Part shown: positions 10,045-30,943 of the stretch, piece by piece
How the letters are laid out: every line of letters begins with the position of its first letter
Numbering within the stretch: position 1 is the first letter of the stretch
Assembly (NCBI RefSeq): GCF_025143365.1
Contig: NZ_JALXPE010000016.1
Coordinates: forward strand, 1-64,000
DNA: 64,000 bases
From: Microbacterium sp. p3-SID336
GTDB lineage: Bacteria > Actinomycetota > Actinomycetes > Actinomycetales > Microbacteriaceae
Direction: 5' to 3'
Position numbers and translations under genes: made by a program
Notes under the pieces: generated by a model
The model's database searches: none
Seen by the model: only the letters and a program-made list of their open reading frames with translations
Told to the model about the DNA's origin: nothing

Positions 10045-10346
10045 TCAGACCACCGCCTTCACGTCCGCACCGACCACGCTCGGATCGGCTATTCGTGAGG
10101 ACAGGTGCGCGCGTCACACCCCACAAGTCCGTGCTGGAGGTGACCTCGGGAACCTGCTGCTGTCCCGCGAGTAACCATCCCGGGTGCCCGGCACTCCCGA
10201 GCCGCCATCGCCCTCTCGCTACTCTCCGCCGCTCATCCTGTTCGCCGTCGCGTGTCCAGATTCCTCCCGAGTTGCGGGCTGGCGCTGTCGCCGCTTCTGC
10301 ACGGAAAGTCAGGCGGTCACCGCTGACGCGGTGGCAGCACTGGTTG

Positions 10347-10365
10347 GGCAATCCTGCGGATTGCC
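10347..10365. other. Perfect 8-bp hairpin GGCAATCC-TGC-GGATTGCC
   Basis: The arms 10347-10354 and 10358-10365 are exact inverted repeats around a 3-nt loop. On the plus strand a TTTCGG run follows, too weak for a clear terminator. An operator or oriT-type stem is possible. Confidence 0.5.
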
Positions 10366-10414
10366 TTTCGGCTGCTTGATTGTGCGGGACCATTCCCTTC
10401 TGCGCAAGGCACGC

Positions 10415-10470
10415 AAAAAATCTCCCCGATAGTAGATCTCCTTCCCCTGGCGTGGGGGAGGAGATTTTTT
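10415..10470 (+). terminator. Terminator hairpin with a competing upstream arm, in the parB-like leader
   Basis: A 12-bp stem (10436-10447 with 10454-10465, one G-U pair, 6-nt loop) ends in a T run to 10470, a classic intrinsic terminator for plus-strand transcripts. An upstream arm, AAAAAATCTCC at 10415-10425, is exactly complementary to GGAGATTTTTT at 10460-10470, so two structures compete for the same 3' arm. It lies 131 nt before the parB-like ATG, which suggests transcription attenuation; a simple bidirectional terminator is the alternative. Confidence 0.65.
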
Positions 10471-10600
10471 GACTCTTCGGCCTTGCGCATTCATTCCTGG
10501 CCCCTTTTCTCGGCATGTGCCGAAAGGCAATGGCAGGGAGGGAACAGCCACACCACCGGGTGTGACGGCCCTCCGGGATTCAGGAAAGGAACCGAAAGCC

Positions 10601-12253: not shown

Positions 12254-12272
12254 CCCGCCGTCAATAACCACA

Positions 12273-12309
12273 GGGGCCGGCCATCGCATCGCCGTCGGTG
12301 ACCGGCCCC
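12273..12309 (+). terminator. GC-rich hairpin after the parB-like gene
   Basis: GGGGCCGG (12273-12280) pairs with CCGGCCCC (12302-12309) across a 21-nt loop, followed by CTCCCTCTTTC. It is probably a weak terminator or mRNA-stabilising stem between the two genes. Confidence 0.4.
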
Positions 12310-12350
12310 GCTCCCTCTTTCCGTTTCGCGACCTCACAGGAGCAGACATC

Positions 12351-13235
12351 ATGAGCACCCAGATTCTCGACCGCATCACCGCCGACCCCGACCAGCAGGA
12401 ACGCTACGCACGCATCGCGCTGGCCTGTCTGACCATCCCCGGCGAACCGAACCCGCCCGCCGTCCGTCTCACCGGCACCAACGGCCCCGCCGTCGTCCAG
12501 CACACCCTCGATACGCTCCCGCCCGCCATCGCAGAACAGACCGTGATCGACGCCCTCGACAGCGCCGCAGACGGCACCCACCGGGTACTCATCCCCACGG
12601 ACCCGGAATGGCCCACCGGGCTCGACGACCTCGGCACGGAACGCCCCGTCGCTCTCTGGGCATCCGGAGACCTCGACCTCCTCACCGGCACCCCCGCCCG
12701 AGCCGTGACGATCACCGGAGCCAGAGCCGCCACGAGCTACGGCGACCACGCCGCCGCCGAACTCGCCCACGACCTCACCAGTACCGGGCGCAGCATCATC
12801 ACCGGAGGCGCGTACGGGATCGACGCCGTCGCCACCCGCGCAACCCTCGCCGCATCCGGACACCCCATCGTCGTCCTCGCATCCGGCATCGACCGCCCCT
12901 ACCCGGCAGGCAACACCGGCCTGCTACATCAGGTCACCGAGCAGGGCCTCGTGCTCACCGAGACCCCGCCGAGTGTTGCACCGACCCGCTCCCGGTTCGT
13001 TGCACGCACCCGCATCCTTGCAGCGCTCGCCGCTGCAACCGTGATCGTGGAAGCCGGAGCGCGCTCGGGCGCACCCCAGGTCGCGCACACCGCGCACCGC
13101 CTCGCGCGCACCGTGGGAGCAGTGCCCGGCCCGATCACGAGCACCACCAGCACGGGATGCCACCTCCTCATCCAAGCGGGCATCGCCCGCCTCATCACCA
13201 GCGCCGACGACCTCGCCCCCACCGTGGACGAGTAA
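12351..13235 (+). CDS. DprA-like DNA-processing protein
   Basis: This 294-aa protein has a Rossmann-like DprA fold. GARAATSYGDHAA at 123-135 matches the GSRxxS-YG motif, TGGAYGIDAVA at 151-161 the SGGAxGID motif, and VLASGIDRPYPAGN at 175-188 follows. The usual FPxRNRIIAGL segment is changed to RFVARTRILAAL (215-226), so the conserved asparagine is lost. Chromosomal DprA loads RecA on ssDNA in transformation; element-borne copies may process incoming single strands or act in defence. An acidic end replaces the usual C-terminal winged helix. Confidence 0.85.
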   Translation: MSTQILDRITADPDQQERYARIALACLTIPGEPNPPAVRLTGTNGPAVVQHTLDTLPPAIAEQTVIDALDSAADGTHRVLIPTDPEWPTGLDDLGTERPVALWASGDLDLLTGTPARAVTITGARAATSYGDHAAAELAHDLTSTGRSIITGGAYGIDAVATRATLAASGHPIVVLASGIDRPYPAGNTGLLHQVTEQGLVLTETPPSVAPTRSRFVARTRILAALAAATVIVEAGARSGAPQVAHTAHRLARTVGAVPGPITSTTSTGCHLLIQAGIARLITSADDLAPTVDE

Positions 13236-14730: not shown

Positions 14731-16656
14731 TCAGTCTGAGAACGCGTCGGAGAAGTAGCCCAGCTTCGGGTCGTCCAGAGTGCCGATTACGAGACCTCGA
14801 TCGAGGAATCGATTGAACTCCTCACAGCTGGTCTCGGGGAGGAGCCCACAGGCGTGACACGCCGCAAGGTTGCAGGAGTCCGGTCCCTGCCCCTTCTCGC
14901 CTGCATCCATACACACCGGATCAGTCGAGCACCAGTGAGCGTCCGCCAGTGCAGAGGCAAAAACTTGCCGCAGGTTGTCCGGGCGTGCCATGCGAACAAG
15001 TCCGCCCATCGTCCCTTCTGAGTCGCCCGCCGCTGTGTAGATCAGTACGCCGGCCATGTTCCGATCGGCCGAGTCAGAGACGTAGAGACGCTCCCGGAGC
15101 GAAGCCGAGCTGTAGCCGCAGGCGAAGATGAACTCGTTGATCAAGAGATGCGACAGCGTATGCAGCAGCACGAACCTTGGGCTAATCGTCCGCCCCTGCA
15201 ACCCGCGCTGGCTTGCCACTGATCCGTAGTGATCGGTGATCCGCTGGGCGCGTGCCTGAACCTCCGCACGCCCCTCCCAGGCTGCAAGGCGTGTCCCATC
15301 GAGTTCGAAGTAGATTCCTTCACCCTTGACCACATAGGCCGGCAGCCAATCCTGTGCAGGGGTCAAGCTGGCACGCCTGAGCATCGCCTTCCCCTCCGTC
15401 AGCTTCAGCTCGCCGTCGCGAACTCGCGTAAACCCCCGCAACGCGCGCGTCTCCCGAAGCACATCGATCGACCTCACGCGAGAGAGGTGGCTTGCTAGAT
15501 CAGCGTGAAGACCGGGGTCGGATGCCGCGAGGAAGTCATCTTTCGGTGTCTCGCGAATCTTCACGTATTCCGGATGCCGCCAGATGTCGTCGCTCGTCAG
15601 GCTCTCCGCGTCGACCGGAGTCTCGACTGGCTCCTCCCCGCTGCTCTCGCCGATGCCGAACTGATCTTGGTATGCCGCCAGTAACTCGTCGTCCGAAATG
15701 GGAGCGAAGAGTTCGGGCGGGACGTTTCGCTCCAGCAGCTTCCGTAGCTGCCCGCCCGACACCTCATCAAGACTCAACTGAAACACGTTGTTGAAGGTCG
15801 TGCTGACAGCAGGGTGTCGGAGCAGCTGATGGACCTCCTCGCTGACGGCTCCCTCACGTCGAGGGAGATAGATCGAGGACTCCACCTTGGGGAAGTAGAC
15901 GTTTCCAGCAGCGCGCAGGGCGCCTCGAATCGGTTGATCGCAAACACCGTCAAGCTGCGCTAACCAGGGCCGAGCCCCACCGCAGAGATAGGGCTGTTCG
16001 GGCGAAACGAGCTGATCGCTGAGATTGGTGTGCTCCTCGCCGTTCTTGTCGAATCGGGCCTCGGTGACCCCTCGAAGCGAGCGCTCCTGCTTGCAGGTAT
16101 CGCAGGTTACGACCTGCCCTTCGAGCCCGCCGCCTCCGCGTGATACGAGGCGCAAGGTGCCCGTACATGATGGGTTGGCCGATCGATGCACCCACTTGTC
16201 AAAGGGAAAGTCATCCAGGTGTCCTCGGGCGCAGATCGCCACGAACGGAACCTGCGACATCTTCGGCTTGTACTTCTTGTCGGCATGCTCCTTGTCCTGG
16301 CACTCAACGAGCGTCTTCATCGTGAGCTTGCTGAGTTCCAGACGCTTGCAATAGATGCAGAACGACCATCGGGGGAAGCGCAACACGGGCACGGTAAGTC
16401 GGACGTTTCGCAAGTCGCTGCCCTGGCCTGACGGCCTGTAGTCCGGTGGCAGTCGGAACTCGGAGACTTTGAGGCGAGACTCAAGCCGCCAGTCGTGTTC
16501 CTGGTACTCCTCCATCGCGAGAGCGCTTTGGTCGACGACCTCGTACCAGTGATCAAGACCAGCAGTGATCACTGAGGTCCCATTCACAAGCACGCTCATG
16601 GCCCCCACGCCGAATGGAGTCACTAGCTGCGCTCGGCGCATTGCTCCAGTGCTCAT
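14731..16656 (-). CDS. drmB: DISARM protein DrmB (DUF1998)
   Basis: This is a 641-aa protein. N-terminal Cys pairs (C100/C103, C142, C185/C188) suggest zinc sites. The DUF1998 region near the C-terminus contains HTLSHLLINEFIFACGYSS, GVLIYTAAGDSEGTMGGLV and a final cysteine cluster (SCNLAACHACGLLP and TSCEEF). In DISARM, DrmB binds the DrmA helicase, and together they engage DNA carrying a 5' overhang. The start at 16656 overlaps the drmA TGA by 4 bp. It is the last gene of the operon. Confidence 0.92.
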   Translation of the reverse strand: MSTGAMRRAQLVTPFGVGAMSVLVNGTSVITAGLDHWYEVVDQSALAMEEYQEHDWRLESRLKVSEFRLPPDYRPSGQGSDLRNVRLTVPVLRFPRWSFCIYCKRLELSKLTMKTLVECQDKEHADKKYKPKMSQVPFVAICARGHLDDFPFDKWVHRSANPSCTGTLRLVSRGGGGLEGQVVTCDTCKQERSLRGVTEARFDKNGEEHTNLSDQLVSPEQPYLCGGARPWLAQLDGVCDQPIRGALRAAGNVYFPKVESSIYLPRREGAVSEEVHQLLRHPAVSTTFNNVFQLSLDEVSGGQLRKLLERNVPPELFAPISDDELLAAYQDQFGIGESSGEEPVETPVDAESLTSDDIWRHPEYVKIRETPKDDFLAASDPGLHADLASHLSRVRSIDVLRETRALRGFTRVRDGELKLTEGKAMLRRASLTPAQDWLPAYVVKGEGIYFELDGTRLAAWEGRAEVQARAQRITDHYGSVASQRGLQGRTISPRFVLLHTLSHLLINEFIFACGYSSASLRERLYVSDSADRNMAGVLIYTAAGDSEGTMGGLVRMARPDNLRQVFASALADAHWCSTDPVCMDAGEKGQGPDSCNLAACHACGLLPETSCEEFNRFLDRGLVIGTLDDPKLGYFSDAFSD

Positions 16657-19600
16657 GCTGGCTCCTCCGCGGCCGTGTCCTCGAACAGGTACGCCTGACT
16701 GATCTCCAGGCGGCATTCGGCATCGACGTTCCGCATGCTTGTCGGCACATCCCAGATCGTCGCGCGCCTATCGAGATCAGGGAGGGTTCCCGCGAACCGC
16801 ATGAGCCCCTGCAGCGGATCACCAGTACGGGGGTTGGCGTCCCACTCGGTACGCTCCCAACCACCCCACTGACGGGCGCGATCACGCGCAAAACGATCGA
16901 GGACCGGGAGCTCGTCGGGTTCCGCGATTTCTGCTCGCTCACGCAGCAGGCGAATGGCCTCGTCGTAGGCAGTCGAAGGGAACGGGTCGGGTCCGAGTGT
17001 CTCGGGAGCGGTCTGCCGAACATAGGCGACCGCGGCAGCGTGAAGCGCTCTGCGAAGGACCGGCATGGCAAATGGAGTGACGGAAGTAGGCTCCACCTGC
17101 GCGTAAAGCTGTTGATGGTAGGTGCGGAAACGCTCGTAGTGGCTGCGGTCACGCGGCTTCGCGGCCCCGTAGATGGTGATGACCAGTCCAGGGCTGACTT
17201 CCTGCTTCCGGCCGACCCGACCGCTCACCTGGATGTACTGCGCCGTGGTCTTCGGTTGCCCGACGATCGTCATCAGCGCGAGCCGATCGATGTCCACACC
17301 TACCTCGATGATGTTCGAGGCGAGACAGATATCGATAGCCTCTTGTCGCTCCTTCCCAGGGGCGTACCTCACCTGGAGCTGTTCGATCGCTTTTGGAATC
17401 TCGTCTGACCGCCGCCTCGATGTGAGTTCCATCTGTCGGTGAGGCCACCGTGGCACGATCCCGTCCCGTCGGCGGAGCCCGGTGAGATAGTCGGGAATGT
17501 CAGCCTGGAGGAGCGAGACGGTATTCCCGAGTTCCCGGAGCGAGTTGAGGAAGTTGAGGTTGGTCCAGTAGCCGTCCCGGTCCTCTTCCGGGATGTCCAC
17601 CGCGGCCTGGAGGGTTGCGGCGGCGACGCGGACCTGGACCGTCTGTGTCGAGCCGAGCGATGCGCTCATCACACCGATGTAGCGCCGCCCTGGTTCCGGG
17701 GTTCCGTCGGCCGAAGTCGCGGGTTCAGCGAAGAAGGATCGCCCCTCCTCAAGACCGTGCGGCGGAAAGAGCGCGACGGTCTCCCTGCCGAAAAGCCCCT
17801 TGATCTGGTCCTCATATCGTCTGACCGTCGCCGTGGAGGCAATGATCTTGGGGAGCACAGGACTCGCGCCGCGGCGATCGGTACAGAGTTCGTCGATCAC
17901 GGGCTCGTAGATTCCGACCATTGAGCCGAGCGGGCCGGAGATCAAGTGCAGCTCGTCCTGAATGATCAAGCTGGGCGGGGACACCTTTCGCGCGCCACTC
18001 CCGTCAAGCCCGAAGAGATTCCTCGCCCTGGGGCGCCACGCCATCATCGCGAACTTGTCGACAGTCCCGATGACAATCGAGGGCCGAGCTTCATAGATAT
18101 CGTCATCGACAACATGGACCGGCAGACCAGCGCGGCGTGAATACTTGCACTCGCCGTCAATGCAGCGGAGCACGACCCTGCCCGCTGCTTCCTCGTACCC
18201 GATCGGTTCCTGTCCACCGCCCTTCTTAGGCTGCGGGCCCATCTGTGCACCGCACCAGGGACACCTCAGCAGAAGGAAAAGGTTCTGCTCGTGAGGTCGT
18301 CTACGCAGAGCCCGCAAGTTGTCAAGTGCTTGCTTCCACGTATTCGGCGTTGAGCTGCCACCCAGCCAAATCCCAATTCCAAAGGGAGCAGCACCGAGGG
18401 TGTCAGAGTTCTGCTCCCGAATGTCTTCGAGCACGCAGACCAGCGATGCAGCACGGAGGAACTGCTGCGCCGTGAGGAGACGCAGGGTGTATCGCATGAG
18501 CGTGTCTGTTCCGGCGTCCTCGGGGTTACGGAGCCGCCGGGAGAGCAAACTGACGGCGGCCGCGCCAAGGTACGCCTCTGTCTTGCCACCACCAGTGGGG
18601 AAGAAGATCAGATCGACGTCGCTGCGAGTCTGGCGTTCTGGCTCTACGAGTTCGGGCAGCACTGCAAGTAGGAACGCGATCTGGAATGGACGCCAGTATC
18701 CCCGGCCAGTCGGCACGGTGAGTGCGGGGTGCGCTCCCTCGACTCTCCAGCGACCATCGCCGCTCTGCTTGGCCTCGCGCAGCTCGAATCCGGATCGGAC
18801 CTGCTGGAGCAGCATCGCCTCGTTTGCCCAGCGAAACGCTCGCGCAGCTCGATCGTTCGCTGCCACGAGGCTCCAGCCTGTTCGCATCCGCGTCAGCGCC
18901 GCTCGTGCTCGACGCATGTGCTCACTCGCGGCGTCCTGATAGCGCGGAAGCAACTCGGGGATCTCGGCCTCCCGCCGGTCGATCCACTTCTCGTACTGAC
19001 TGAGGACAAGCTCCACTTGGGCGGCGCCGTCCTCGCTACCGCTTGCCAGGGCCGCCATACTGACAGCCACCGGCTGCCGCTTGCCATCGGCATCGAAGGC
19101 AGGATTCCCGTTGTCGTCAGACAGGTACACGTTCGGTGAGAGGCTGACGACCTCATATGCAGGCAGAGCCGCGGCCTGCACGAACGGCACAACTCCATCG
19201 GCGTTGACTGCCCCCCATTCGGCTGCACAGCCATGCCCGATCGCATAGGTGCGCTGGTTCCGGTAGAGGAGGTCAAGTGATCGCTCCTCCTCGTCCCGGT
19301 CGGGCAGCTCGACCTCCGGATAGGGGACGATGTCAGCGTCGCCGACAGTCGACACCTTGAAGCCAACCTGAAAGACCGCCGCAGACGGGCCGGAACCAGG
19401 GGCATCGTTGACGACTGCGAGGGTCACGATCCTGAGAGCCGGGTCGTCAGCCCCGGGGACCGGACGACTGAACACTCGCACCGCAAGAGGGACAACGCCT
19501 TCGCCGCTCAGGAGCACGACGTCGATAACTTTGAGCCGATTCGTCTCCCGCAGAACCGTACGACCCGAGATCGTGCCGACCGCCTCGAAGGGGCGTCTGA

Positions 19601-20153
19601 CCCACCAATCGACTGGTTTGGCGACACCTGGGATGTGCACGGTCAGCTTCTCGTATCTCGCGCCGACTACCTCAACTGTGAGGGTTCCCGAGTCAGCCAT
19701 GCGAGTCTCAAACGAGACGGCCATCGCCGACGGCTTGAACGTGTTGGCATCCGTGAGATCGAAGTCATCCGAGTCAGCGACATCGTGACGGACGTGGCCC
19801 TGAATCTCGACAGGCGGCCCAATCTGGTCGTCTTCGGAGAGCGCGATACCGGTGATTCCGTCGAGGGCGTCGGAAACCTCCTCGACGGCGCTTTCCACCG
19901 GCGAGCCGCCGACGGTGGCGCCCGCGAATAAGACTCCGACGCCGTAGCGCTTGAGCGGGGTGCCGCTCGTGAGAATCTCCTGGCCGCTGTCCGCATCGTG
20001 GAACTGGCCCCGGGATGCCTCCGTCGTCTCGAAATGCACGACTCCAGCGTTAATCGTCAGCGGCTGCCCCCGCACGGGATCACCGTCGAGAGGCCCGAAG
20101 AGCTCGCGCCGTAGGGCCGCCTCAACGGTCTCACGGGCTTCGATTCCGCTCAT
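16653..20153 (-). CDS. drmA: DISARM SF2 helicase DrmA
   Basis: This is a 1166-aa superfamily 2 helicase. Walker A PTGGGKTEA is at 519-527, the DELH box at 733-736 (IIQDELHLISG), motif III STAT at 783-786, SNIIEVGVDIDRL at about 946-958 and the arginine-finger segment QYIQVSGRVGRK at 972-983. A putative zinc insertion has CPWC at 631-634 and C664/C669. The first 450 residues form the DrmA N-terminal region. With DrmB it forms the DISARM core that recognises invading DNA. The start overlaps the NERD-helicase stop by 4 bp. Confidence 0.94.
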   Translation of the reverse strand: MSGIEARETVEAALRRELFGPLDGDPVRGQPLTINAGVVHFETTEASRGQFHDADSGQEILTSGTPLKRYGVGVLFAGATVGGSPVESAVEEVSDALDGITGIALSEDDQIGPPVEIQGHVRHDVADSDDFDLTDANTFKPSAMAVSFETRMADSGTLTVEVVGARYEKLTVHIPGVAKPVDWWVRRPFEAVGTISGRTVLRETNRLKVIDVVLLSGEGVVPLAVRVFSRPVPGADDPALRIVTLAVVNDAPGSGPSAAVFQVGFKVSTVGDADIVPYPEVELPDRDEEERSLDLLYRNQRTYAIGHGCAAEWGAVNADGVVPFVQAAALPAYEVVSLSPNVYLSDDNGNPAFDADGKRQPVAVSMAALASGSEDGAAQVELVLSQYEKWIDRREAEIPELLPRYQDAASEHMRRARAALTRMRTGWSLVAANDRAARAFRWANEAMLLQQVRSGFELREAKQSGDGRWRVEGAHPALTVPTGRGYWRPFQIAFLLAVLPELVEPERQTRSDVDLIFFPTGGGKTEAYLGAAAVSLLSRRLRNPEDAGTDTLMRYTLRLLTAQQFLRAASLVCVLEDIREQNSDTLGAAPFGIGIWLGGSSTPNTWKQALDNLRALRRRPHEQNLFLLLRCPWCGAQMGPQPKKGGGQEPIGYEEAAGRVVLRCIDGECKYSRRAGLPVHVVDDDIYEARPSIVIGTVDKFAMMAWRPRARNLFGLDGSGARKVSPPSLIIQDELHLISGPLGSMVGIYEPVIDELCTDRRGASPVLPKIIASTATVRRYEDQIKGLFGRETVALFPPHGLEEGRSFFAEPATSADGTPEPGRRYIGVMSASLGSTQTVQVRVAAATLQAAVDIPEEDRDGYWTNLNFLNSLRELGNTVSLLQADIPDYLTGLRRRDGIVPRWPHRQMELTSRRRSDEIPKAIEQLQVRYAPGKERQEAIDICLASNIIEVGVDIDRLALMTIVGQPKTTAQYIQVSGRVGRKQEVSPGLVITIYGAAKPRDRSHYERFRTYHQQLYAQVEPTSVTPFAMPVLRRALHAAAVAYVRQTAPETLGPDPFPSTAYDEAIRLLRERAEIAEPDELPVLDRFARDRARQWGGWERTEWDANPRTGDPLQGLMRFAGTLPDLDRRATIWDVPTSMRNVDAECRLEISQAYLFEDTAAEEPA

Positions 20154-21859
20154 GCCTCTCCTCCAACCAGTCGCCGTAGCGTCTTCGTTTCTACCAGGGC
20201 GGTCAGGCGATCCGTCGCGCGTGTCAGCCCGACGTAGACGAGGGCATCGAAGTGCGGCCCACCGGAGTCATCAAGGTCAGTGACGATGACGGCCGGCGCG
20301 TCCAGTCCCTTGAACGAGTGGATGGTGCCGTAGCGGAGCCGCCCCTTGATCGGCTTCGAACCGTCTGCGGGACTCAGCACTTGACGAAGCCAGGGCTCAG
20401 ATGTGCTCGCAGCGACAGAACTATCGCCAAGCGGGCTGAGCACGACGATCTCTGTCAGATCGAAGCCTTCGTCACGCAGATCGCCTACGACCTTCCGCAA
20501 TATGGCGGCCTGGTCCTCGCCGCGGACGTACTTGATGATCGTCGGATCGATACCGTCGTCGGTTCGGCGGAACTCTCTGAACCCCGGCGTCAAGTGACCG
20601 AGGAGATTCACCTGATATCCGATGCGGGGCAGGTTCCGACAGTTCTCGGACAGCCGGAACGACGCCAGATGCGGCGATCGGGCGCGAAGTACCTCGCGTG
20701 CCCCCTCGCTGCCATAGATCGCCTGGCGTTCAAAGTCACCGAACATGAGAACGCGACCGTCGCGCAGCCCGCCCTTGACGAGCAGATCGAGCAAGTCGAG
20801 GTAGGTGCCAGTCGCGATGTCCTGAATCTCATCGACGATGAGGAAGTCCCCGACCTCCTCCGCACTCCGCTCAGCAAGGCCCTCAAGGGCCTTCTCGGGC
20901 AGCACTCGCTCCCAGAAGTCGCTATCGGCGTCTGCCGGCGGGCCGCTCATGCCGGCGAGTCGCAACATCTCCTGGTGCAATGTGCCCACGCGGAGCCCCA
21001 CGACATCCATGAGCTTCTCGCGGAGACTACGCCCAAGTAGGCGGTTGAAACACAGAAGTCGACCTGCTCGCCCCTGAGCGACCTCCCGCTGAGCCGACTC
21101 AGCGGCGAGGAAGGTCTTGCCTGTGCCGGCGGGGCCTGTGAACAAGACGCCTCTGTTGTCGGCGGCTGAGTCCAGTGCGCGGTACTGCTCCTCGACGAAC
21201 TGTGCGAGCTGACCCTCTCGCGCTTGTCGGCGGTCCCCAGCAGTCATCACAACCTCGAACCGCGGACGAAGCGTAGCCACGATCCGTTCAGTGGTGGCCC
21301 GGTCCGGGCCATATCCACCAAACCCGAAGTACTTGATCATCGAGGCGAGGTGCTGCGCTCCCTCTCTCATGACTCGTTCAACCGCTTGAGCTGTGGTCGG
21401 GAGGTCGCTCGAATCAAGCACCTGCCACGAGTGCCACTCAGGTGAGTCGGGCAGCGTCGCTCGCGCACGCACTCCCGTGAACCACACCGCGTGCAGGACC
21501 GGGACGTCCCGCAGCTCGACCCGTTTGCTCCGGAGGTAGCCCCGGATGCTGTGCATCGCCTCCTGCGCCTGCTGAAAAGGTCCTCGCACGGTCGGAGGGT
21601 CCTGACCGAGGCGCCAGGTGCCATCGGAGCTACGCGCGACCGACAGGTGCGACTTCACCTCTACCACCAGCAGGCCAGCGTCGGGCGCGACGACGACGAA
21701 GTCCGCCTCTCCTTCGACCTGTCGCTCATGCTGCGCGATCCCAAGTGAGTGCAGCACAGTCCAGTGTTCAGTCCCAGCTGCGTCCCGCAGTGCCACAAAG
21801 ACGGCCTTCTCGCCTGGAGGCGCGGACTCGGTGCAGTAGGCCGGGATCATTCGAGCCAT
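20150..21859 (-). CDS. NERD nuclease-UvrD-like helicase fusion
   Basis: This is a 569-aa protein. The N-terminal NERD domain carries a nuclease-type E50/D53 and E67-x-K69 pattern (GEADFVVVAP, LLVVEVKS). The helicase part has Walker A GPAGTGKT at 242-249, Walker B VDEIQD at 342-347, SENCRN at 404-409, TIHSFKGLDA at 512-521 and VGLTRATDRL at 543-552. Standard DISARM has DrmC, a phospholipase-D nuclease, instead. The ATG at 21859 has GAGGG 6 nt upstream and overlaps the previous gene by 13 bp; an ATG at 21850 would give a 4-bp overlap. Confidence 0.88.
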   Translation of the reverse strand: MARMIPAYCTESAPPGEKAVFVALRDAAGTEHWTVLHSLGIAQHERQVEGEADFVVVAPDAGLLVVEVKSHLSVARSSDGTWRLGQDPPTVRGPFQQAQEAMHSIRGYLRSKRVELRDVPVLHAVWFTGVRARATLPDSPEWHSWQVLDSSDLPTTAQAVERVMREGAQHLASMIKYFGFGGYGPDRATTERIVATLRPRFEVVMTAGDRRQAREGQLAQFVEEQYRALDSAADNRGVLFTGPAGTGKTFLAAESAQREVAQGRAGRLLCFNRLLGRSLREKLMDVVGLRVGTLHQEMLRLAGMSGPPADADSDFWERVLPEKALEGLAERSAEEVGDFLIVDEIQDIATGTYLDLLDLLVKGGLRDGRVLMFGDFERQAIYGSEGAREVLRARSPHLASFRLSENCRNLPRIGYQVNLLGHLTPGFREFRRTDDGIDPTIIKYVRGEDQAAILRKVVGDLRDEGFDLTEIVVLSPLGDSSVAASTSEPWLRQVLSPADGSKPIKGRLRYGTIHSFKGLDAPAVIVTDLDDSGGPHFDALVYVGLTRATDRLTALVETKTLRRLVGGEA

Positions 21860-23379
21860 TGAGCACCCTCGTCGGCAAAGGGCACGCGAGCGTCGTAGCG
21901 GGCGACCAGTTCCGTAAATGGCGCGATCGCAAGGACGCGGGTGACGAACATGCCCCGAAAGCCTGGCTCAGCAATGTCGAGAGTCATATGACCGACGCGC
22001 TCGAGCTCGTGAAGGTCCGCGGCATCCGCCGCTGCTTCCAGCCGGTCACGCAGCTCCCGGGTGGCTCGATGCACCTCATGTCTTAGCAATGAGGCGTGCC
22101 CGAAGTGCGGCTGGATCGGTAGCCCCAGCCATCCGAGGAGCCGCTCGAAATCGCCATCACTCTGCGGACGGATAACGTGCGGCGATGCCCAGGCGCGAAC
22201 CTGGCCGGCCGCGCGAACACCGAGTGCACGCAAGGCGCGTTCGGAGTCGCGGATGCCTCTCGCCCTAAGTTGCTCAATCAGTGCAGACTTCCAGGACGCC
22301 TGCGACTCCTGGGTTGCTGACGCGCGAGGGCCGATTCGCGTATATGCTCGCGCATGGAGGGACTCCCGCTCAGCCTCACCTTCACGCAGAAGCAGGTACG
22401 TGCCCGGAGCGACCGCGGACACCTCCGAATAGCCGACGCGCTCGCCAGGCGGCTGTGTCGGATCAAGCGCACGGATGCGCTCACCATCGTCATCAAGCCA
22501 GATTGCGCGATTCCCCGAAAGAAGAATCTTGCGCGCTTCCACCTCGTCCGCGTGCGGCGCACGGTCCTCACTCACCCGGCTCCCCCAGACCGGCTGCGGA
22601 AGGAGGTCCTCCTCCTGGATCGGCTCGGTCTCCGACATCGCAGGCTCCGGCGGCGCAGGCAGCGCATCGCCGACCTCGACGATGCGCGCGGCGACCTGGA
22701 TACCGCCTTCGGCGTACTGTGCGATCGCCGACCTTGGGACGTTTCGATCGCCGAACCACGCCGGAAGGATAAACGTCACTTCCAGCGTGCGGGGCGCAGT
22801 GACCGCCGTCGGTTTGAAGAATCGCGGGGGACCCACGAAGTAGGCGATGTCCTCGGAAACATCGGCGCGCTCAAGATCGCCGAGCGTGAGAACTCGTGCC
22901 CCAAGCGAGCCGAGCCATTCGCCCAGGGCTTCTCGCGATCGACTGCTCGCAGTCACGACAATTGCCGAGTCCACTCCGACCTCAGTCAGCGACTCAAGCA
23001 GTACGGCGCCTACGAGTGGGTCGCGGGTGCAGAGTGCCGCCGCGGCGTCAGCGATCTCTCGCAGGAGCGCATCTTCGTCGACGGCTCCGATCAGCTGCCG
23101 AGCCTGACGACCCACCTCGCCCGCAGCAGCCGTGAGCTGAGCATTGCGCTCTATCGGCATCGGGTCGGTGATGAGGCGCCAGCGCAGTGCTTTCGCGGCA
23201 CCGGCAAGATGATCCCAGACGCCGGGCCCATCCCGCTGGATCAGTCGGAAAAGGCCGCGGGTGGCCGAATCGAACCTTGCACCGAGTTCGTCCCGAACAG
23301 CAATGATCTCGACGCCATGCCGCACCAGCGAAGCCGAGGCTGTATATCGCTGATCGAGTCCGATGATCCGCGACGTCAT
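21847..23379 (-). CDS. Unrecognised defence-operon protein (510 aa)
   Basis: The product has 510 aa. Residues 1-215 look alpha/beta, with a helix-rich start and a Rossmann-like stretch (SAIVVTASSRSREALGEW, then GARVLTLGDLERADVSEDI and IAYFVGPPRFF). This resembles the C-terminal lobe of a degenerate helicase or ATP-independent recombinase fold, without Walker motifs. The middle (about 225-330) is acidic and the rest helical. It may be a divergent DrmE-like subunit, which I cannot confirm. The ATG overlaps the upstream TGA by 4 bp, so it is coupled to both neighbours. Confidence 0.75.
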   Translation of the reverse strand: MTSRIIGLDQRYTASASLVRHGVEIIAVRDELGARFDSATRGLFRLIQRDGPGVWDHLAGAAKALRWRLITDPMPIERNAQLTAAAGEVGRQARQLIGAVDEDALLREIADAAAALCTRDPLVGAVLLESLTEVGVDSAIVVTASSRSREALGEWLGSLGARVLTLGDLERADVSEDIAYFVGPPRFFKPTAVTAPRTLEVTFILPAWFGDRNVPRSAIAQYAEGGIQVAARIVEVGDALPAPPEPAMSETEPIQEEDLLPQPVWGSRVSEDRAPHADEVEARKILLSGNRAIWLDDDGERIRALDPTQPPGERVGYSEVSAVAPGTYLLLREGEAERESLHARAYTRIGPRASATQESQASWKSALIEQLRARGIRDSERALRALGVRAAGQVRAWASPHVIRPQSDGDFERLLGWLGLPIQPHFGHASLLRHEVHRATRELRDRLEAAADAADLHELERVGHMTLDIAEPGFRGMFVTRVLAIAPFTELVARYDARVPFADEGAQWLE

Positions 23380-24329
23380 AGTGCCACCGTGAATCCGAGT
23401 GCCTCGACACCGGCAGGAGGAGCCCAACCGAGCTGTGTCGACAGCGCAATCGGCTCTCCGCGCGAGTTTCTGAGCTGCACGACCTGTTCCGCTGCACTCT
23501 CGTCAGCAACGGATCGATCGAAGACGCACACGACGATCGGGCTTAGGACGTCATTGAGATATCTGATCGCACCTTGGCCGTCCAGAATCGTGAGGGATAC
23601 GTCATCCGAAAGCGGAAGCTGGTCAGCAAGGCCCGAAGACGAGTAGATGCGCGAGAACCAAGTTGCCGATTTCTCGGTCCTCGGCAGAAGCAGGGTAGCC
23701 AGCGAGTCGCCATCGGGATCATCACCCCGGGCAAGAACAGCTTCGAGGTCGTCGCTGATCCAGCTTTTCGTGCCCACGATTGCGAGGTCCGCCGCAGGAG
23801 CGACAAGACGCCGCGCCCAGTTTCGGTCAACACCTGTCATCCGACCGATGCTCCCGATGCGCGGTCGCGGCATCCGCTCGGCCGGGTCGCCCTCGGCAGT
23901 GGCCGCGACTGCTTCCAGCATGTCGACGACCCACTGCCCTGCGAGTGTGACATCAACGCGCAGCTTGTCTCGCACGACCTTCTCGGACAACCCCTGGAAC
24001 CTACCTGAAATCACGTGGTTCGCGTTGACGGCACGATAGTTGCCCTGCGGCAGTGCCGCGCGCAGAACCGTCAACGGATCAGTCGCCACCTGAGTGGGCG
24101 GCCTTCCGAGAGTCCAACCGGAACCAATGAGCGCCGCTGCATACTCGCGACTCGGAACCGAGATTGCAATGATCAGCTGTCGACCTCTGAAATCATCAAC
24201 CTTCCGCGCAAGCCGCGTTCCCAACGCGAGGATGGGACCAATCCAAGACGAGCAAACCGAGGCGGAGTCAGGGTTTTCAGCAAGACTGAGGAGCACGTTC
24301 GGCCCAGGCCGACTCTCCGCCTTACTCAT
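23376..24329 (-). CDS. Unrecognised defence-operon protein (317 aa)
   Basis: The 317-aa product matches no family I know. It has an N-terminal alpha/beta part (QLIIAISVPSREYAAALIG), a basic middle with IGSIGRMTGVDRNWARRL, and a C-terminal stretch VSLTILDGQGAIRYLNDV followed by IVVCVFDRS, where D-x-S/D residues might be catalytic (speculative). The ATG at 24329 follows the methyltransferase gene by 65 bp, and its TGA overlaps the next ATG. Always judged with its 510-aa partner, it is a candidate new DISARM-associated subunit. Confidence 0.72.
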   Translation of the reverse strand: MSKAESRPGPNVLLSLAENPDSASVCSSWIGPILALGTRLARKVDDFRGRQLIIAISVPSREYAAALIGSGWTLGRPPTQVATDPLTVLRAALPQGNYRAVNANHVISGRFQGLSEKVVRDKLRVDVTLAGQWVVDMLEAVAATAEGDPAERMPRPRIGSIGRMTGVDRNWARRLVAPAADLAIVGTKSWISDDLEAVLARGDDPDGDSLATLLLPRTEKSATWFSRIYSSSGLADQLPLSDDVSLTILDGQGAIRYLNDVLSPIVVCVFDRSVADESAAEQVVQLRNSRGEPIALSTQLGWAPPAGVEALGFTVAL

Positions 24330-24394
24330 CGTTTCCTCCCCCCTCCACTGTAGGGATGACGGCCGACATTGGACGCAGGCAGCGGCTGAGCTGA

Positions 24395-25435
24395 CTACGC
24401 TGTGACCGTCTGGGTAGCGCTCGCCGACGTGGTTAGCGCAGTCGAGGTGGCCGCCGCGAGCGAACGAGCCACGGGCGGTGGCACAGCGTTCGAGACCTGC
24501 TCCACCTGCTGTGAGAGAGTGCCTTCGAGGACGAATGACCTCGGGAAGCCCTGCAGGAGCATCGCCTCATAGATGCTGAGCCGACGCGCTCCGTCCGGAT
24601 GAACATGAATCTCGCGATGTCCGTAGGCGACCGTGGGACTTGGCTTGTCCCACGACAGGCGTCGGAAGCTCCTAGTGGGCGCGGGCGCAGCGGTCTCGCC
24701 CTTGAATCTCTTGGACCGCGGAGTCATCGTCCAATGGTTCGGATGTGTCGGGATGTCGTCCGCTGAGAGGCTTCGCGAGAAGAAAACTGGCTGAGGCAGG
24801 TGACCAATTGCGCCGCGCACGGTCAAGTCGACTCCCTCGCGGGAGATTGTCTTCGGCTTGAAGGCGCTAGCGGCTGCCTCGTTCTTGAATCCTGAAATGA
24901 TCACACGGTTCCGTGTCTGGGGCACGCCGTAGTCGAGGGCCGAGTGGTCGGCGACACCCGCCGTGAGTTCCAACTCTTTGAGGCGAGCCAGGATCCCACG
25001 GAATGTCACCGAGTGCTTCGCATCGCGGATGCCCATGACGTTCTCGAAGAGCACGAACTGCACGTCGTAGCGTGTTTGCAGCGCCTGAACGATCTCAAGG
25101 TAGAAGGTTGGCATTTGATTTCGGGGGTCATCAGCGCGAGAGTTCGAGTTCGCGCGTGAGAATCCCTGACACGGGGGCCCGCCGATGATTCCGATGGCCT
25201 CGCCATCCGTCAGCGCCTTCGCGATCTCATCCAAGACGGCGAGGCTGCCGGACGCCTCGTTCCGGATCGTGATGTCCGCCGCAACTGACATGGTCGCTGG
25301 GAAGTTGCGCTTATGCGTCTGCACCGCGGCCACCATCCGATCGACAGCAAAGGCGATTTCGTAGCCCTCCAGATGGAAGCCAAGATCAAGTCCTCCTGCA
25401 CCCGAGAAGAGGCTCACGATGCGGGGCAAGACCAT
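24395..25435 (-). CDS. drmMII: DNA (cytosine-5)-methyltransferase, DrmMII-like
   Basis: This 346-aa enzyme transfers methyl groups from S-adenosylmethionine to cytosine C5. Motif I FSGAGGLDLGF is at 10-20, motif IV GGPPCQGFS at 85-93 with catalytic C89, motif VI ENV at 131-133, motif VIII QTRNR at 173-177, and motif X near the C-terminus has SNAVPPPVA. In class 2 DISARM the DrmMII enzyme marks host DNA. The ATG at 25435 is preceded by GAAGGAGC. It is the first gene of the operon, divergent from the relaxase; self-marking of host sites is inferred. Confidence 0.92.
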   Translation of the reverse strand: MVLPRIVSLFSGAGGLDLGFHLEGYEIAFAVDRMVAAVQTHKRNFPATMSVAADITIRNEASGSLAVLDEIAKALTDGEAIGIIGGPPCQGFSRANSNSRADDPRNQMPTFYLEIVQALQTRYDVQFVLFENVMGIRDAKHSVTFRGILARLKELELTAGVADHSALDYGVPQTRNRVIISGFKNEAAASAFKPKTISREGVDLTVRGAIGHLPQPVFFSRSLSADDIPTHPNHWTMTPRSKRFKGETAAPAPTRSFRRLSWDKPSPTVAYGHREIHVHPDGARRLSIYEAMLLQGFPRSFVLEGTLSQQVEQVSNAVPPPVARSLAAATSTALTTSASATQTVTA

Positions 25436-25851: not shown

Positions 25852-28800
25852 GTGACGGTGTCGATGCGTGTGCTCAGTGCGGGGGAGGGGTATCGGTATC
25901 TCCTCAAGAGCATCGCGGCCGGTGACACCGGGCGGGACCTTGCGACGTCACTGACCCGCTATTACGCGGAGGCGGGAACCCCGCCGGGATTCTGGCTTGG
26001 TACTGGTTTGACCGGTCTCGAGGATGCGGCCGTCGCGGACGGTGAGGTGGTGACGGAGGCCCAGCTTCGTCATCTGCTGGGACGGGGTGAGCATCCGACG
26101 ACGGGTGAGCAGCTCGGGCGGGCGTACTTCGCGTTCAAGCCGTTGCGGGAGCGGGTGAAGATCCGCACTGGCAGGTTGTCCGAGGATCTGAACGCTGAGA
26201 AGCGGGAAGCCGCGGTGGAGAACATCGTCCGTGAGGAGAAGGAACGCAAGCGCCCGCGCACCGTCGCCGGGTATGACTACACCTTCTCCGTCCCGAAATC
26301 GGTCTCCGTACTCTGGGCCGTTGCAGACGGCGGCACACAGGCACTGATCGGACAGGCCCATCACGCGGCAATCCGGGAAGTCATCGATCTGATCGAGCGT
26401 GACGTCGCGGCGAGCAGGACAGGCACGAACGGTGTCGCGCAGGTCGACGTGCGGGGCGCGGTGGCGACCGCGTTCGATCACTTCGATTCCCGCGCGGGCG
26501 ACCCTCAGCTGCACACGCATGTCGTGATCGCGAACCGGGTGCAGGCAGCGGACGGGAAGTGGCGGACGCTGGATGGCCGGCCCATGCACGCGGCCGTGGT
26601 CGCGTTGTCTGAGCACTACAACGCGGTGCTCGCCGACCACCTCACCCGTGTCCTCGGGCTGGGGTGGGAAGCTCGCGATCGCGGCCGGGACCGCAACCCC
26701 TCGTGGGAGATCACCGGGGTGGGCGACGCGTTGATCGATGAGTTCTCGTCCCGGTCGGCCGCGATCGACACGGAGAAGAACCGGCTCATCGACGAGTACG
26801 TCACGCGTCACGGGAAGTACCCGTCAGAGACGACGATCATCCGGTTGCGCCAGCAGGCGACCCTCGCCACCCGTCCCGCGAAAGAAGTCCGCTCCCTCGC
26901 TGACCTGACCGAGGAATGGCGTGGACGGGCGACCCACGTGCTGGACGAGGAATGCACCACGTGGGCGACGCATCTTCTCGAATCCGGCACCGCCCGGGGA
27001 ACCCTGCGCGCAGATGATCTTCCGCTGGACCAGGCCACCGCGATCGGTGAAGTCGTCGTCGCGCAAGTCGGGGTGAAGCGGTCGACGTGGCGGCGCTGGA
27101 ATCTGCATGCCGAGGCATCCCGGCAGACGATGGGACTGCGCTTCGCGTCCACCACCGACCGGGAAACGATCATCGGCATGATCGTCGACGCCGCCGAGAC
27201 TGCGTCGCTGCGGCTGACCCCGCCTGAGCTCGTCGTCCCGCCAGCGGAGTTCACTCGTCCGGACGGGTCGAGCATGTTCCGTCCGAAGCATCACACGGTC
27301 TTCTCCTCGACCCGCATCCTGGAAGCCGAAGACACCCTCCTCGCACTCTCACAGGCCACGAACGCCCCCGCCGTGCCGCTGCGCACCGTAAGCGCAGTCG
27401 TCTCCCGGCGAGACGCCCGAGGCATCCGGCTGTCGGTGGAGCAGCAGGCCGCGGTGGAGAAGATCGCCGTCTCCGGGCGGAGCATCGACGTGCTCGTCGG
27501 CCCTGCCGGAACCGGGAAGACCACGACCCTCGGAGCGCTGCGCCGCGCATGGGAGAAGAAGCACGGCGCCGGCACCGTCATCGGACTTGCCCCCTCGGCC
27601 GCTGCGGCGGAAGTGCTTGCAGAGGACCTGGGCATCGAAACCGACAACACTGCGAAGTGGCTTCATGAACATGACCACGGCCGATGGGACCTGCAGCCCG
27701 GCCAGCTGGTCATCATTGACGAGTCCTCCCTCGCTGGCACCCTCGCCCTGGAACGCATCGCCACCCACGCCGCCGAGGCCGGCGCGAAGGTCGTCCTCGT
27801 CGGGGACTGGGCGCAGCTGACCGCGGTCGATGCCGGTGGGGCATTCGGGTTGCTCGTCCGGGACCGCGGTGATGCCCCCGAGCTGGCCGACGTGCGCCGA
27901 TTCCACGCCGAGTGGGAGAAGACGGCGTCCCTGCACCTCCGCCTGGGCCGGACCGACGTGATCGACACCTACGACGATCAGGGTCGGATCGTCGTAGGTG
28001 ACTTTGAAGACATCCTCGACGCCGCCTACCGGTCCTGGTACATGGACATCGCCGACGGCAAGAGCAGCCTCCTGATCGCGGAGACCAACGAGACCGTCAC
28101 CGAGCTGAACAGCCGCGCCCGCGACGACCGCATCCTCGACGGCCACGTCTCACCCGACGGCATCCGTCTGCGAGACGGCACCCGCGCCGGGACAGGAGAC
28201 ATCATCATCACCAGGAAGAACGACCGGCGCCTGACCACCGGCGGAGGGGCGTGGGTGAAGAACGGCGACCGGTGGCGCGTCGCCGAACACCACGACGACG
28301 GTTCCCTCACCATCGCACGTGCCGACGCCCGCCACGCCACCACCGTCGTGCTCCCCGCTGGCTACGTGGCAGACAACGTCGACCTCGGATATGCGGTCAC
28401 TGCCCACCGCGCACAGGGCGCAACCGTGGACACTGCGCACGCGATCGTGCACTCGTCTTCAATGACGCGGGAGAACTTCTACGTCGCGATGACCCGCGGC
28501 CGGGCGTCCAACACCGCCTACGTCGCCATCGACCAGGCCCACCTTGAAGAACACCAGCTCCCCGACACCGAGCCCACCGCCCACTCGATCCTCTACGGGG
28601 TCTTGCAGCATGAAGGGGCGGAGAGGTCCGCGCACGAGACGATCGAGGCCGAGCAGCAAGCCTGGTCCTCGATCGCGCACCTCGCCGATCAGTACGAGAC
28701 CGTCGCGCAGGAAGCCCAGGCGGAGCACATCACGGAACTGTTTGCGCGAGCGGGCCTTGACCACGGCCTCGTCGACGAGCTGACAGAGTCGGAAACGTTC

Positions 28801-29373
28801 GGGTCCATCGTCGCCACGCTGCGCCGGGCAGAGGCCGCCGGGCACCGACCGGAACGGCTGATCGACCGCGCACTGAAGGCCGGGCCGCTCACTGACGCCG
28901 ATGACCCGGCGAGCCTGCTGCGCCACCGCGTGCAGCAACTCGCCACGCGCACCAGCCCCGGACGCGGGCGCGGCACCCGGCGACGGTTCATCGCCGGGTT
29001 CATCCCCGAAGCATCCGGCAGCATGCCCGAGGACATGACCCGCGCGCTGACCGAACTACGATCGCTCATCGAACAGCGCGCCCAAGCCCTCGCGGACGAC
29101 GCCCTCACGGAGAAGCCTCCCTGGCTGAAGGCGCTCGGCCCCGAACCTCGTCCCGATTCAGCTGCGAGAGAGCCGTGGGGGACGGTATTGCGCATGGTCG
29201 TCGCCTATCGGGAACGCTACGGGATCACCGACCACACCCCGCTCGGGGCGAAACCGGATGCCACGCAGCAGCGCCTCGATCACGAACGCATCGACGGCTT
29301 CCTTACCAGCCTCCGCCGCCGTGGCACGCCTCCGGCCACGCCCGAGGTCACGCGAGAGGGAATCGGACGGTGA
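25852..29373 (+). CDS. MobF-family relaxase with helicase domain (TraA/TrwC type)
   Basis: This is a 1173-aa protein. The relaxase domain has catalytic tyrosines at Y37/Y38 (RYY) and the histidine triad H210, H221 and H223 in HFDSRAGDPQLHTH. The RecD2-like helicase has Walker A GPAGTGKT at 550-557, IIDESS at 621-626 and GDWAQL at 651-656, with AHRAQGATVD further on. Such proteins nick oriT and unwind the transferred strand. The GTG at 25852 gives the family-typical N-terminus MTVSMRVLSAGEGYRYL; an ATG at 25864 is possible. No coupling protein or secretion genes accompany it. Confidence 0.93.
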   Translation: MTVSMRVLSAGEGYRYLLKSIAAGDTGRDLATSLTRYYAEAGTPPGFWLGTGLTGLEDAAVADGEVVTEAQLRHLLGRGEHPTTGEQLGRAYFAFKPLRERVKIRTGRLSEDLNAEKREAAVENIVREEKERKRPRTVAGYDYTFSVPKSVSVLWAVADGGTQALIGQAHHAAIREVIDLIERDVAASRTGTNGVAQVDVRGAVATAFDHFDSRAGDPQLHTHVVIANRVQAADGKWRTLDGRPMHAAVVALSEHYNAVLADHLTRVLGLGWEARDRGRDRNPSWEITGVGDALIDEFSSRSAAIDTEKNRLIDEYVTRHGKYPSETTIIRLRQQATLATRPAKEVRSLADLTEEWRGRATHVLDEECTTWATHLLESGTARGTLRADDLPLDQATAIGEVVVAQVGVKRSTWRRWNLHAEASRQTMGLRFASTTDRETIIGMIVDAAETASLRLTPPELVVPPAEFTRPDGSSMFRPKHHTVFSSTRILEAEDTLLALSQATNAPAVPLRTVSAVVSRRDARGIRLSVEQQAAVEKIAVSGRSIDVLVGPAGTGKTTTLGALRRAWEKKHGAGTVIGLAPSAAAAEVLAEDLGIETDNTAKWLHEHDHGRWDLQPGQLVIIDESSLAGTLALERIATHAAEAGAKVVLVGDWAQLTAVDAGGAFGLLVRDRGDAPELADVRRFHAEWEKTASLHLRLGRTDVIDTYDDQGRIVVGDFEDILDAAYRSWYMDIADGKSSLLIAETNETVTELNSRARDDRILDGHVSPDGIRLRDGTRAGTGDIIITRKNDRRLTTGGGAWVKNGDRWRVAEHHDDGSLTIARADARHATTVVLPAGYVADNVDLGYAVTAHRAQGATVDTAHAIVHSSSMTRENFYVAMTRGRASNTAYVAIDQAHLEEHQLPDTEPTAHSILYGVLQHEGAERSAHETIEAEQQAWSSIAHLADQYETVAQEAQAEHITELFARAGLDHGLVDELTESETFGSIVATLRRAEAAGHRPERLIDRALKAGPLTDADDPASLLRHRVQQLATRTSPGRGRGTRRRFIAGFIPEASGSMPEDMTRALTELRSLIEQRAQALADDALTEKPPWLKALGPEPRPDSAAREPWGTVLRMVVAYRERYGITDHTPLGAKPDATQQRLDHERIDGFLTSLRRRGTPPATPEVTREGIGR

Positions 29374-30709: not shown

Positions 30710-30943
30710 ATGACGGTGGCTGAGGTGATCCAAGCCGCGATGGCGCTCACGCCCGAGGAGCGATCGCGGGTCGCCGACGTCCTCTACGACGCCGACGCCC
30801 CCGACCAGGCGGTCATCGACGCAGCCTGGGCATCCGTCGCTTCACGCAGGGCTGACGAACTCGAGAACGGCACGGTCACGATGCTCTCTCGCGAGGAAGC
30901 GAACGCCTACCTCGACGCCCGCGCTGCCGAGAGAAGCGTTTGA
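30710..30943 (+). CDS. Addiction-module antitoxin (TIGR02574-like)
   Basis: This 77-aa antitoxin has the short-helix pattern MTVAEVIQAAMALTPEERSR, then a W-containing helix (DAAWASVASRRADELE), typical of the addiction-module proteins paired with ParE/RelE toxins. It would neutralise the toxin encoded directly downstream and probably autoregulates. Its TGA overlaps the toxin TTG by 4 bp, so the toxin is translated only after the antitoxin. Confidence 0.85.
   Translation: MTVAEVIQAAMALTPEERSRVADVLYDADAPDQAVIDAAWASVASRRADELENGTVTMLSREEANAYLDARAAERSV

What the first reader, a model, noticed from the sequence alone, without database searches (positions are those of the whole stretch)
14731..25435. 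Non-canonical DISARM-like defence operon: drmMII, two unknowns, NERD-UvrD helicase, drmA, drmB
DrmA, DrmB and a DrmMII-like 5-cytosine methyltransferase are clearly recognisable from their motifs. Class 1 and class 2 DISARM, as described, add DrmC (phospholipase D) with DrmD/DrmMI or DrmE. Here no HxKxxxxD phospholipase motif is present; instead a NERD nuclease-helicase and two unrecognised proteins occupy the middle. Five genes overlap end to start, four by exactly 4 bp counting neighbours, so they are expressed as one unit. This is the best candidate for an undescribed system in the window.
Basis: partly seen in the sequence, partly recalled or inferred. Interest (0 to 1): 0.86.

Follow-up and report, generated by a model that had tools for sequence, protein, structure and literature searches.

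The report
DISARM variant with split DrmE
A six-gene bacterial locus turns out to be a distinct variant of the known DISARM anti-virus system, in which one poorly understood component appears to be made as two proteins and the usual nuclease gene is absent while a different nuclease-helicase gene sits in the operon; this gives a testable lead on which enzyme destroys the viral DNA.

Summary
The six-gene operon is real. DrmA, DrmB, a C5-cytosine methyltransferase and a NERD-UvrD nuclease-helicase are confirmed; no DrmC (phospholipase D) occurs in the window. The two 'unknowns' can be placed. The larger (510 aa) belongs to a family in which 32 of 59 members scanned match Pfam DrmE_C, and its two Nostoc members align to positions 393-802 of the 838-position DrmE family model (E about 1e-18). 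The smaller (317 aa) folds confidently, resembles a degenerate SF2-helicase RecA domain and sits where DrmE's N-terminal half belongs; that link rests on position, size and fold, not sequence. Best reading: class-2-like DISARM with DrmE split in two and a NERD-UvrD enzyme instead of DrmC. The five-gene cassette keeps its order in 13 of 14 related actinobacterial contigs, recurs in Rhodococcus and Deinococcus plasmids, and has a Nostoc form without the NERD gene at that place. The DrmA proteins tested from these loci form one clade (support 99/100). In 42 DrmA loci inspected, full NERD-UvrD (21) and DrmC (7) never co-occurred, though the sample is not random. Nine searches of an open-licence library found no description. 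Antiphage function and mechanism remain inferred.

The parts
24395..25435 (-). C5-cytosine DNA methyltransferase, 346 aa (DrmMII-like in role; closest PADLOC profile DruM2)
   Evidence: Pfam PF00145 E 1e-49; PADLOC DruM2 E 4e-97, DrmMII 3e-40; FSGAGG at 10, PPCQGF at 87, ENV at 131, QTRNR at 173
23376..24329 (-). 317-aa protein ('g2'), proposed DrmE N-terminal half: degenerate SF2-helicase RecA-like fold (RecA1 assigned by inference), no Walker A
21847..23379 (-). 510-aa protein ('g3'), proposed DrmE C-terminal half: RecA-like domain with helical parts plus DrmE_C region (ORF can open at 23427; probable start 23379)
20150..21859 (-). NERD nuclease domain fused to UvrD-like SF1 helicase, 569 aa
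   Evidence: PF08378 NERD E 7e-11, PF13538 UvrD_C_2 1.6e-8; NERD D...ExK and Walker A kept in 15 of 15 homologues aligned, Walker B DExQD in 14 of 15
16653..20153 (-). DrmA, SF2 (YprA-family) helicase, 1166 aa
   Evidence: NF038325 DISARM_DrmAS 824 bits, below its cut-off of 950; PDB 7s9v_A E 4e-139; GGGKT, DELH, QVSGRVGR present
14731..16656 (-). DrmB, DUF1998/MZB protein, about 641 aa (ORF can open at 16716)
   Evidence: NF038324 DrmB_fam 435 bits, over its cut-off of 240; PDB 7s9v_B E 2e-73
25852..29373 (+). context only: MobF/TrwC-type relaxase-helicase, divergent from the operon
   Evidence: PF08751 E 1e-89, NF041492 MobF 256 bits

Best explanation
The operon is a class-2-like DISARM antiphage variant. 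Supported by sequence: DrmA, DrmB, a C5 methyltransferase, an intact-looking NERD-UvrD enzyme, a DrmE-type C-terminal half as its own gene, and no DrmC in the window. Inferred: the 317-aa protein is the N-terminal half of the same DrmE, so that DrmE is an ATP-incompetent SF2-like pseudo-helicase split between its two RecA domains. Proposed working: the methyltransferase marks the host's own DNA; DrmAB loads onto unmethylated DNA with single-stranded 5' ends, as shown for a Serratia DrmAB (PMC9142583); the two DrmE halves reassemble on DrmAB as a clamp or adaptor; the NERD-UvrD enzyme is recruited, translocates and degrades the DNA, doing the job expected of DrmC.
For: Profiles for DrmA, DrmB, methyltransferase and NERD-UvrD; solved DrmA and DrmB as the only PDB sequence matches at E <= 0.001; DrmE_C in the g3 family; DrmE_fam matches of the two Nostoc g3; profile-profile score above all 60 shuffles and the reversed control; fold comparisons of g2 and g3 dominated by helicase RecA domains; g2 + g3 = 827 aa against 768-858 aa in 20 of 22 DrmE-family proteins; order kept in 13 of 14 contigs, g2- and g3-type genes in Deinococcus and Nostoc by profile while four other proteins tested gave none; one DrmA clade, 99/100; NERD-UvrD in 21 of 42, DrmC in 7 of 42, both in 0 of 42; purifying selection.
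Confidence: 0.62

Rival explanations
1. The locus is a DISARM variant in which g3 is a DrmE homologue but g2 is an unrelated accessory protein (for example a sensor), so DrmE is truncated rather than split.
For: g2 shows no sequence similarity to DrmE and no library hit at E <= 0.1. g2 is more diverged than g3 against two of the four nearest contigs: 82% against 95% identity with L013 and 75% against 90% with L014, but 93% against 93% with L015 and 70% against 68% with L016.
Against: g2 is directly upstream of g3 in 14 of 14 contigs, and a g2-type gene precedes g3 in Deinococcus and both Nostoc plasmids (in one Nostoc plasmid a transposase gene lies between). The folds look complementary and the summed length fits DrmE.
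Confidence: 0.25
2. It is a Druantia type II or a Druantia-DISARM hybrid, since the methyltransferase is closest to DruM2.
For: PADLOC's best profile for the methyltransferase is DruM2, E 4e-97.
Against: DrmA and DrmB are separate genes and score best with DISARM families; DruE profiles reach only E about 1e-3; g2 and g3 hit no PADLOC model at E <= 1. The methyltransferase of this type is not seen in 7 of 14 contigs.
Confidence: 0.05
3. It is DISARM machinery kept by a mobile element mainly against competing plasmids or integrative elements rather than phages.
For: A MobF relaxase is the next gene in the window, with ArdC-like, ParB-like and DUF2637 genes nearby; PMC9142583 (passage) cites work in which DISARM protects against plasmid conjugation.
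Against: By ORF reading the flanks differ in other contigs, for example L015. The two roles do not exclude each other.
Confidence: 0.15

Closest known systems
DISARM class 2 (drmE, drmA, drmB, drmC, drmMII)
   Same: DrmA nearest the short-type model, DrmB, a C5 methyltransferase, a DrmE-type C-terminal region, co-directional genes
   Different: DrmE apparently in two genes, no drmC found, an added NERD-UvrD gene, methyltransferase nearer DruM2 and seen in only part of the loci
DISARM class 1 (drmD, drmMI, drmA, drmB, drmC)
   Same: DrmA and DrmB
   Different: no DrmD, DrmMI or DrmC in the operon; DrmA in another clade, with QVSGRVGR or QVTGRVGR as motif VI in 16 of 16 clade rows and 0 of 16 others
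Unnamed plasmid DrmA-DrmB cassettes with NERD-UvrD (Rhizobium L011 and L039, Azospirillum L043, Shinella L042, Deinococcus gobiensis L010); perhaps the 'DISARM-like' system that PMC11090510 says accompanies McrBC
   Same: DrmA, a NERD-UvrD enzyme and no DrmC match
   Different: no g2 or g3 match by BLAST in the two looked at (L010, L011); NERD gene downstream rather than upstream of drmA in four of five; a second UvrD-type helicase in five of five; DrmA outside the window's clade in the three tested (L010, L011, L039)
ARMADA, BRIGADE, TALON and Druantia (YprA-family systems, PMC12458937)
   Same: a YprA-family helicase at the core; TALON typically also has a NERD nuclease
   Different: there the helicase and DUF1998 module are typically one protein, and partners such as BrxHII, PglX, TPR-CSD and TBP were not recognised among the six proteins here

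Membership tests
DISARM core | DrmA helicase | tested here: met
   PADLOC DrmA E 4e-204; DISARM_DrmAS E 1.9e-247, but 824 bits against a cut-off of 950; 7s9v_A
DISARM core | DrmB (DUF1998) as a separate gene | tested here: met
   DrmB_fam 435 bits, cut-off 240; 7s9v_B
DISARM class 1 and class 2 (as PADLOC requires) | DrmC phospholipase-D nuclease | tested here: not met
   No DrmC-profile match and no strict HKD motif in the window; positive controls found, two of them (L044, L045) not used to build the profile. DrmC elsewhere in the genome is not excluded: no whole genome is held
DISARM class 2 | DrmE C-terminal part | tested here: met
   Through relatives: DrmE_C in 32 of 59 family members at E <= 0.1, over the Pfam cut-off in P0104 (52% identical to the window protein) and both Nostoc members; DrmE_fam E 3e-19 and 3.6e-18 for the Nostoc members, under that model's cut-off. 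The window's own sequence scores none
DISARM class 2 | DrmE as one protein of about 800 aa | tested here: not met
   Two genes of 317 and 510 aa
DISARM class 2 | DrmE N-terminal part | tested here: inconclusive
   g2 in the right place, of the right size and RecA-like, but without sequence similarity
DISARM class 2 | DrmMII C5 methyltransferase | tested here: inconclusive
   C5 methyltransferase present; DrmMII profile E 3e-40 but DruM2 better, E 4e-97
DISARM class 1 | DrmD SNF2 helicase and DrmMI adenine methyltransferase | tested here: not met
   In the rows listed (best 25 families per protein) the only DrmD hit is a 63-residue P-loop stretch of the NERD-UvrD protein, E 0.002, and no DrmMI appears
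Druantia type II | DruE: helicase and DUF1998 in one protein | tested here: not met
   Separate drmA and drmB genes; DruE profiles only E about 1e-3
ARMADA | BrxHII-like helicase plus PglX-like methyltransferase with a fused YprA helicase | tested here: not met
   DrmA and DrmB are separate; the only BrxH hit is a 45-residue helicase stretch of DrmA, E 0.007, and no PglX hit appears in the rows listed; definition from PMC12458937
Any antiphage system | Protection against phage | not testable with these tools
   Needs plaque assays

The most novel reading that the evidence does not exclude
This is a separate DISARM class, present in Actinomycetota and Deinococcota and, in a reduced or more fragmented form, in Cyanobacteriota and Bacillota. 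Its hallmark is DrmE made as two proteins that rebuild a dead SF2 helicase on DrmAB, and its nuclease is a translocating NERD-UvrD enzyme that takes DrmC's place. The methyltransferase and the N-terminal part of g2 would be exchanged together as the self/non-self specificity unit.
Probability: 0.33. Interest if true: 0.68.

Novelty: new variant of a known kind. Interest (0 to 1): 0.52.

Why it matters
[quoted passage not shown] This variant encodes a different, definite candidate inside the operon, and DrmC and full NERD-UvrD did not co-occur in any of the 42 loci inspected. That paper also leaves DrmE for future study. Reading DrmE as a split pseudo-helicase gives a structural hypothesis that one co-purification or structure would test. 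For annotation, PADLOC, NCBIfam and Pfam leave the window's g2 and g3 unnamed, so such loci would look like incomplete DISARM.

Tried and rejected

Literature: nine searches of an open-licence library. PMC12458937: parts 1-5 of 8 read; its supplementary tables were not seen and could contain such loci. PMC11090510, PMC9252829, PMC9142583, PMC10270631 and PMC10952713: passages only. The original DISARM paper (Ofir 2018) is not held; class definitions come from the PADLOC figure legend, annotated class 1 plasmid loci and recall.
Full report
Observation. The window (69% GC) holds six co-directional minus-strand genes between 14731 and 25435. In order of transcription they are a C5 methyltransferase (346 aa), g2 (317 aa), g3 (510 aa from the start shared with homologues), a NERD-UvrD protein (569 aa), DrmA (1166 aa) and DrmB (about 641 aa). 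With these starts g2/g3, NERD/drmA and drmA/drmB overlap by 4 bp and g3/NERD by 13 bp; 65 bp separate the methyltransferase from g2. The same overlaps appear in relatives such as L017 and L025. dN/dS is 0.02-0.19 for all six genes against L013, L014 and L015. Against the more distant L016, L017 and L025 it is 0.06-0.26 where computable, leaving out a non-orthologous methyltransferase match in L017 (0.66); synonymous sites are saturated in several of those pairs.

Named parts. DrmA and DrmB are secure: DISARM_DrmAS E 1.9e-247 (824 bits, under the cut-off of 950) and DrmB_fam 435 bits (cut-off 240). Their only PDB sequence matches at E <= 0.001 are the DrmA and DrmB chains of 7s9v/7s9w. DrmA keeps GGGKT and DELH, with QVSGRVGR as motif VI. 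The NERD-UvrD protein keeps the nuclease D...ExK and the helicase Walker A in 15 of 15 homologues aligned, and Walker B DExQD in 14 of 15 (Deinococcus differs). The methyltransferase is a C5 enzyme whose best PADLOC profile is DruM2 rather than DrmMII. Neither a DrmC profile nor the strict HKD motif matches in the window.

The larger unknown. The searches found 273 relatives of g3 and 246 of g2 at E <= 0.001 among about 8,000 scored candidates each; the best 120 of each were listed. A Pfam scan of 59 g3-family members found DrmE_C in 32 (threshold E 0.1, best 1.1e-8, a Nostoc member), though not in the window's own protein. Of the members seen one by one, three pass the curated cut-off of 27 bits: both Nostoc members and P0104, an unnamed protein 52% identical to the window's g3. 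A 278-aa Priestia protein passes it too. NCBIfam DrmE_fam (838 positions) matches the Nostoc g3 proteins at 453-802 (E 3e-19) and 393-802 (E 3.6e-18), under its cut-off of 80 bits (69 and 65); the stricter DISARM_DrmE model does not match them. An extended g3 profile against a 20-member DrmE-family alignment scores 50.4, against at most 28.9 in 60 column shuffles and 16.6 reversed. That alignment is itself of divergent DrmE: the members tested score under the NCBIfam cut-offs. I conclude that g3 corresponds to the C-terminal half of a DrmE-type protein.

Recurrence. A genome-contig scan with g3 returned 14 loci, all actinobacterial by their record titles. The order g2, g3, NERD-UvrD, drmA, drmB is kept in 13 of 14; one of these, L026, has broken frames in g2, g3, drmA and drmB. 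The fourteenth, L023, a 4-kb contig, runs g2-g3-drmA with no NERD gene between and ends in drmA. A window-type methyltransferase lies upstream in 7 of 14 (cut by the contig end in L023); a different C5 methyltransferase is elsewhere in the locus in 4 of 14; no relative of the window's enzyme was seen in 3 of 14, two of them with little upstream sequence. Only C5 relatives were looked for. On plasmids, Rhodococcus opacus pROB02 has the same five genes. Deinococcus psychrotolerans has g2- and g3-type genes (P 3.5e-5 and 9.5e-7 against profiles without it) and a NERD-UvrD gene running up to the end of the record, directly before drmA. Two Nostoc HK-01 plasmids have g2, g3, drmA and drmB without the NERD gene between g3 and drmA; in one a transposase gene lies between g2 and g3. 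Priestia has three consecutive genes of 330, 206 and 278 aa before drmA; only the last matches DrmE_fam (580-837, E 2.6e-11).

Placement. A tree of 32 DrmA proteins puts the window, 10 of the 14 contigs (the other four were not included), R. opacus, both Nostoc, D. psychrotolerans and Priestia in one group of 16 with support 99/100, apart from seven class-1-type loci (drmD and/or drmC) and from the Rhizobium, Photobacterium, D. gobiensis, Streptomyces, Tsukamurella and Lactiplantibacillus loci. The root is a midpoint. The two DrmE-bearing loci L032 and L033 are long branches far from the group. treekit warns about several long rows (Priestia among them) and about unlike composition (Priestia and both Nostoc among them). 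Motif VI reads QVSGRVGR or QVTGRVGR in 16 of 16 rows of the group; the pattern used was found in 0 of the other 16.

Nuclease exchange. In 42 distinct DrmA loci (1 window, 25 of the 85 plasmid records with a DrmA match, 14 genome contigs, 2 from genomes found by DrmE_C), a full NERD-UvrD match occurs in 21, a DrmC match in 7, both in 0 and neither in 14. This is not a random or independent sample: 14 loci were fetched by g3, the plasmid ones by DrmA similarity and my choice, and locus lengths differ. Thirteen of the 21 NERD-UvrD and five of the 7 DrmC sequences were used to build the profiles; L044 and L045 are independent DrmC positives. Among the 14 'neither', Nostoc L002 has a partial NERD-UvrD-like match in a 733-aa protein about 1 kb downstream of drmB, and several others have UvrD-type helicases without the NERD part (L005, L007, L009).

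How it probably works. Shown elsewhere for a Serratia DrmAB (PMC9142583, passages): it binds DNA with 5' single-stranded ends, is held off by a trigger loop, and its ATPase is stimulated less by DNA carrying 5-methylcytosine. Inferred here: the same sensing by DrmAB, self-protection by this or a neighbouring methyltransferase, the DrmE halves as a non-hydrolysing clamp or adaptor on DrmAB, and degradation by NERD-UvrD. I put the chance that NERD-UvrD is the effector nuclease at about 0.6.

Comparison and novelty. Against class 2, DrmC is not met and DrmE is not one protein; against class 1, DrmD, DrmMI and DrmC are not met. It is built on the DISARM core and probably works like it, but belongs to neither class as PADLOC requires. 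Nine searches of the open-licence library found no description. PMC11090510 (passage) mentions a 'DISARM-like' system associated with McrBC and leaves it for a later paper; in parts 1-5 of PMC12458937 I saw no split DrmE and no NERD-UvrD in DISARM. I rate it a new variant of a known kind.

A lead on specificity. Against L013 and L014, a block with the methyltransferase (73-87% DNA identity) and above all the first part of g2 (65% and 62% in the 400-bp bin from 24200 down, gaps counted as differences) is more diverged than g3 to the middle of drmA (84-97%). The end of drmB is also more diverged (73-85%), and L015 does not show the pattern, so past exchange of several blocks is possible and the link to specificity is only a guess.

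Noticed in passing
window 23800-25435: Methyltransferase plus the N-terminal part of g2 are more diverged from L013 and L014 than g3 to mid-drmA, as if exchanged as a block; the 3' end of drmB is also more diverged, and L015 does not show it.
   Followed up: partly
window 8198-13235 and 25852-29373: Genes typical of mobile elements around the operon: DUF2637/HTH protein, ArdC-like antirestriction protein, ParB-like protein (just under the Pfam cut-off), DprA-like protein and a MobF relaxase. GC is 63-67% up to 32 kb and 70-74% beyond. No tRNA was found in the window.
   Followed up: partly
window 30710-31251: Small toxin-antitoxin pair: addiction-module antitoxin (PF09720) and ParE-type toxin (PF05016).
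   Followed up: no
L008 6104-8575: Priestia megaterium plasmid: three consecutive genes (330, 206, 278 aa) before drmA where a single DrmE might be expected; only the last matches DrmE_fam (580-837 of 838), so DrmE may be in three pieces there.
   Followed up: partly
L002 16403-18607: Nostoc plasmid: a 733-aa protein annotated as pentapeptide repeat, about 1 kb downstream of drmB, matches parts of the NERD-UvrD profile (E 1e-13), perhaps a displaced nuclease.
   Followed up: no
L010, L011, L039, L042, L043: DrmA loci with a NERD-UvrD gene and a second UvrD-type helicase, in L010 and L011 near a DUF2357 (McrC-like) gene and a methyltransferase: apparently another DISARM-like group.
   Followed up: partly
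L017, L019, L020, L021, L025, L026: By sequence reading only, short Vsr-like endonuclease ORFs appear near the cassette in L019, L020, L021 and L026; a second type of C5 methyltransferase in L017, L019, L025 and L026.
   Followed up: no
P0011 (relative of g3, 91% identical): One source names this close relative as from a Pseudozobellia MAG (Bacteroidota by my recall), which may be a mis-binned contig or a transfer.
   Followed up: no
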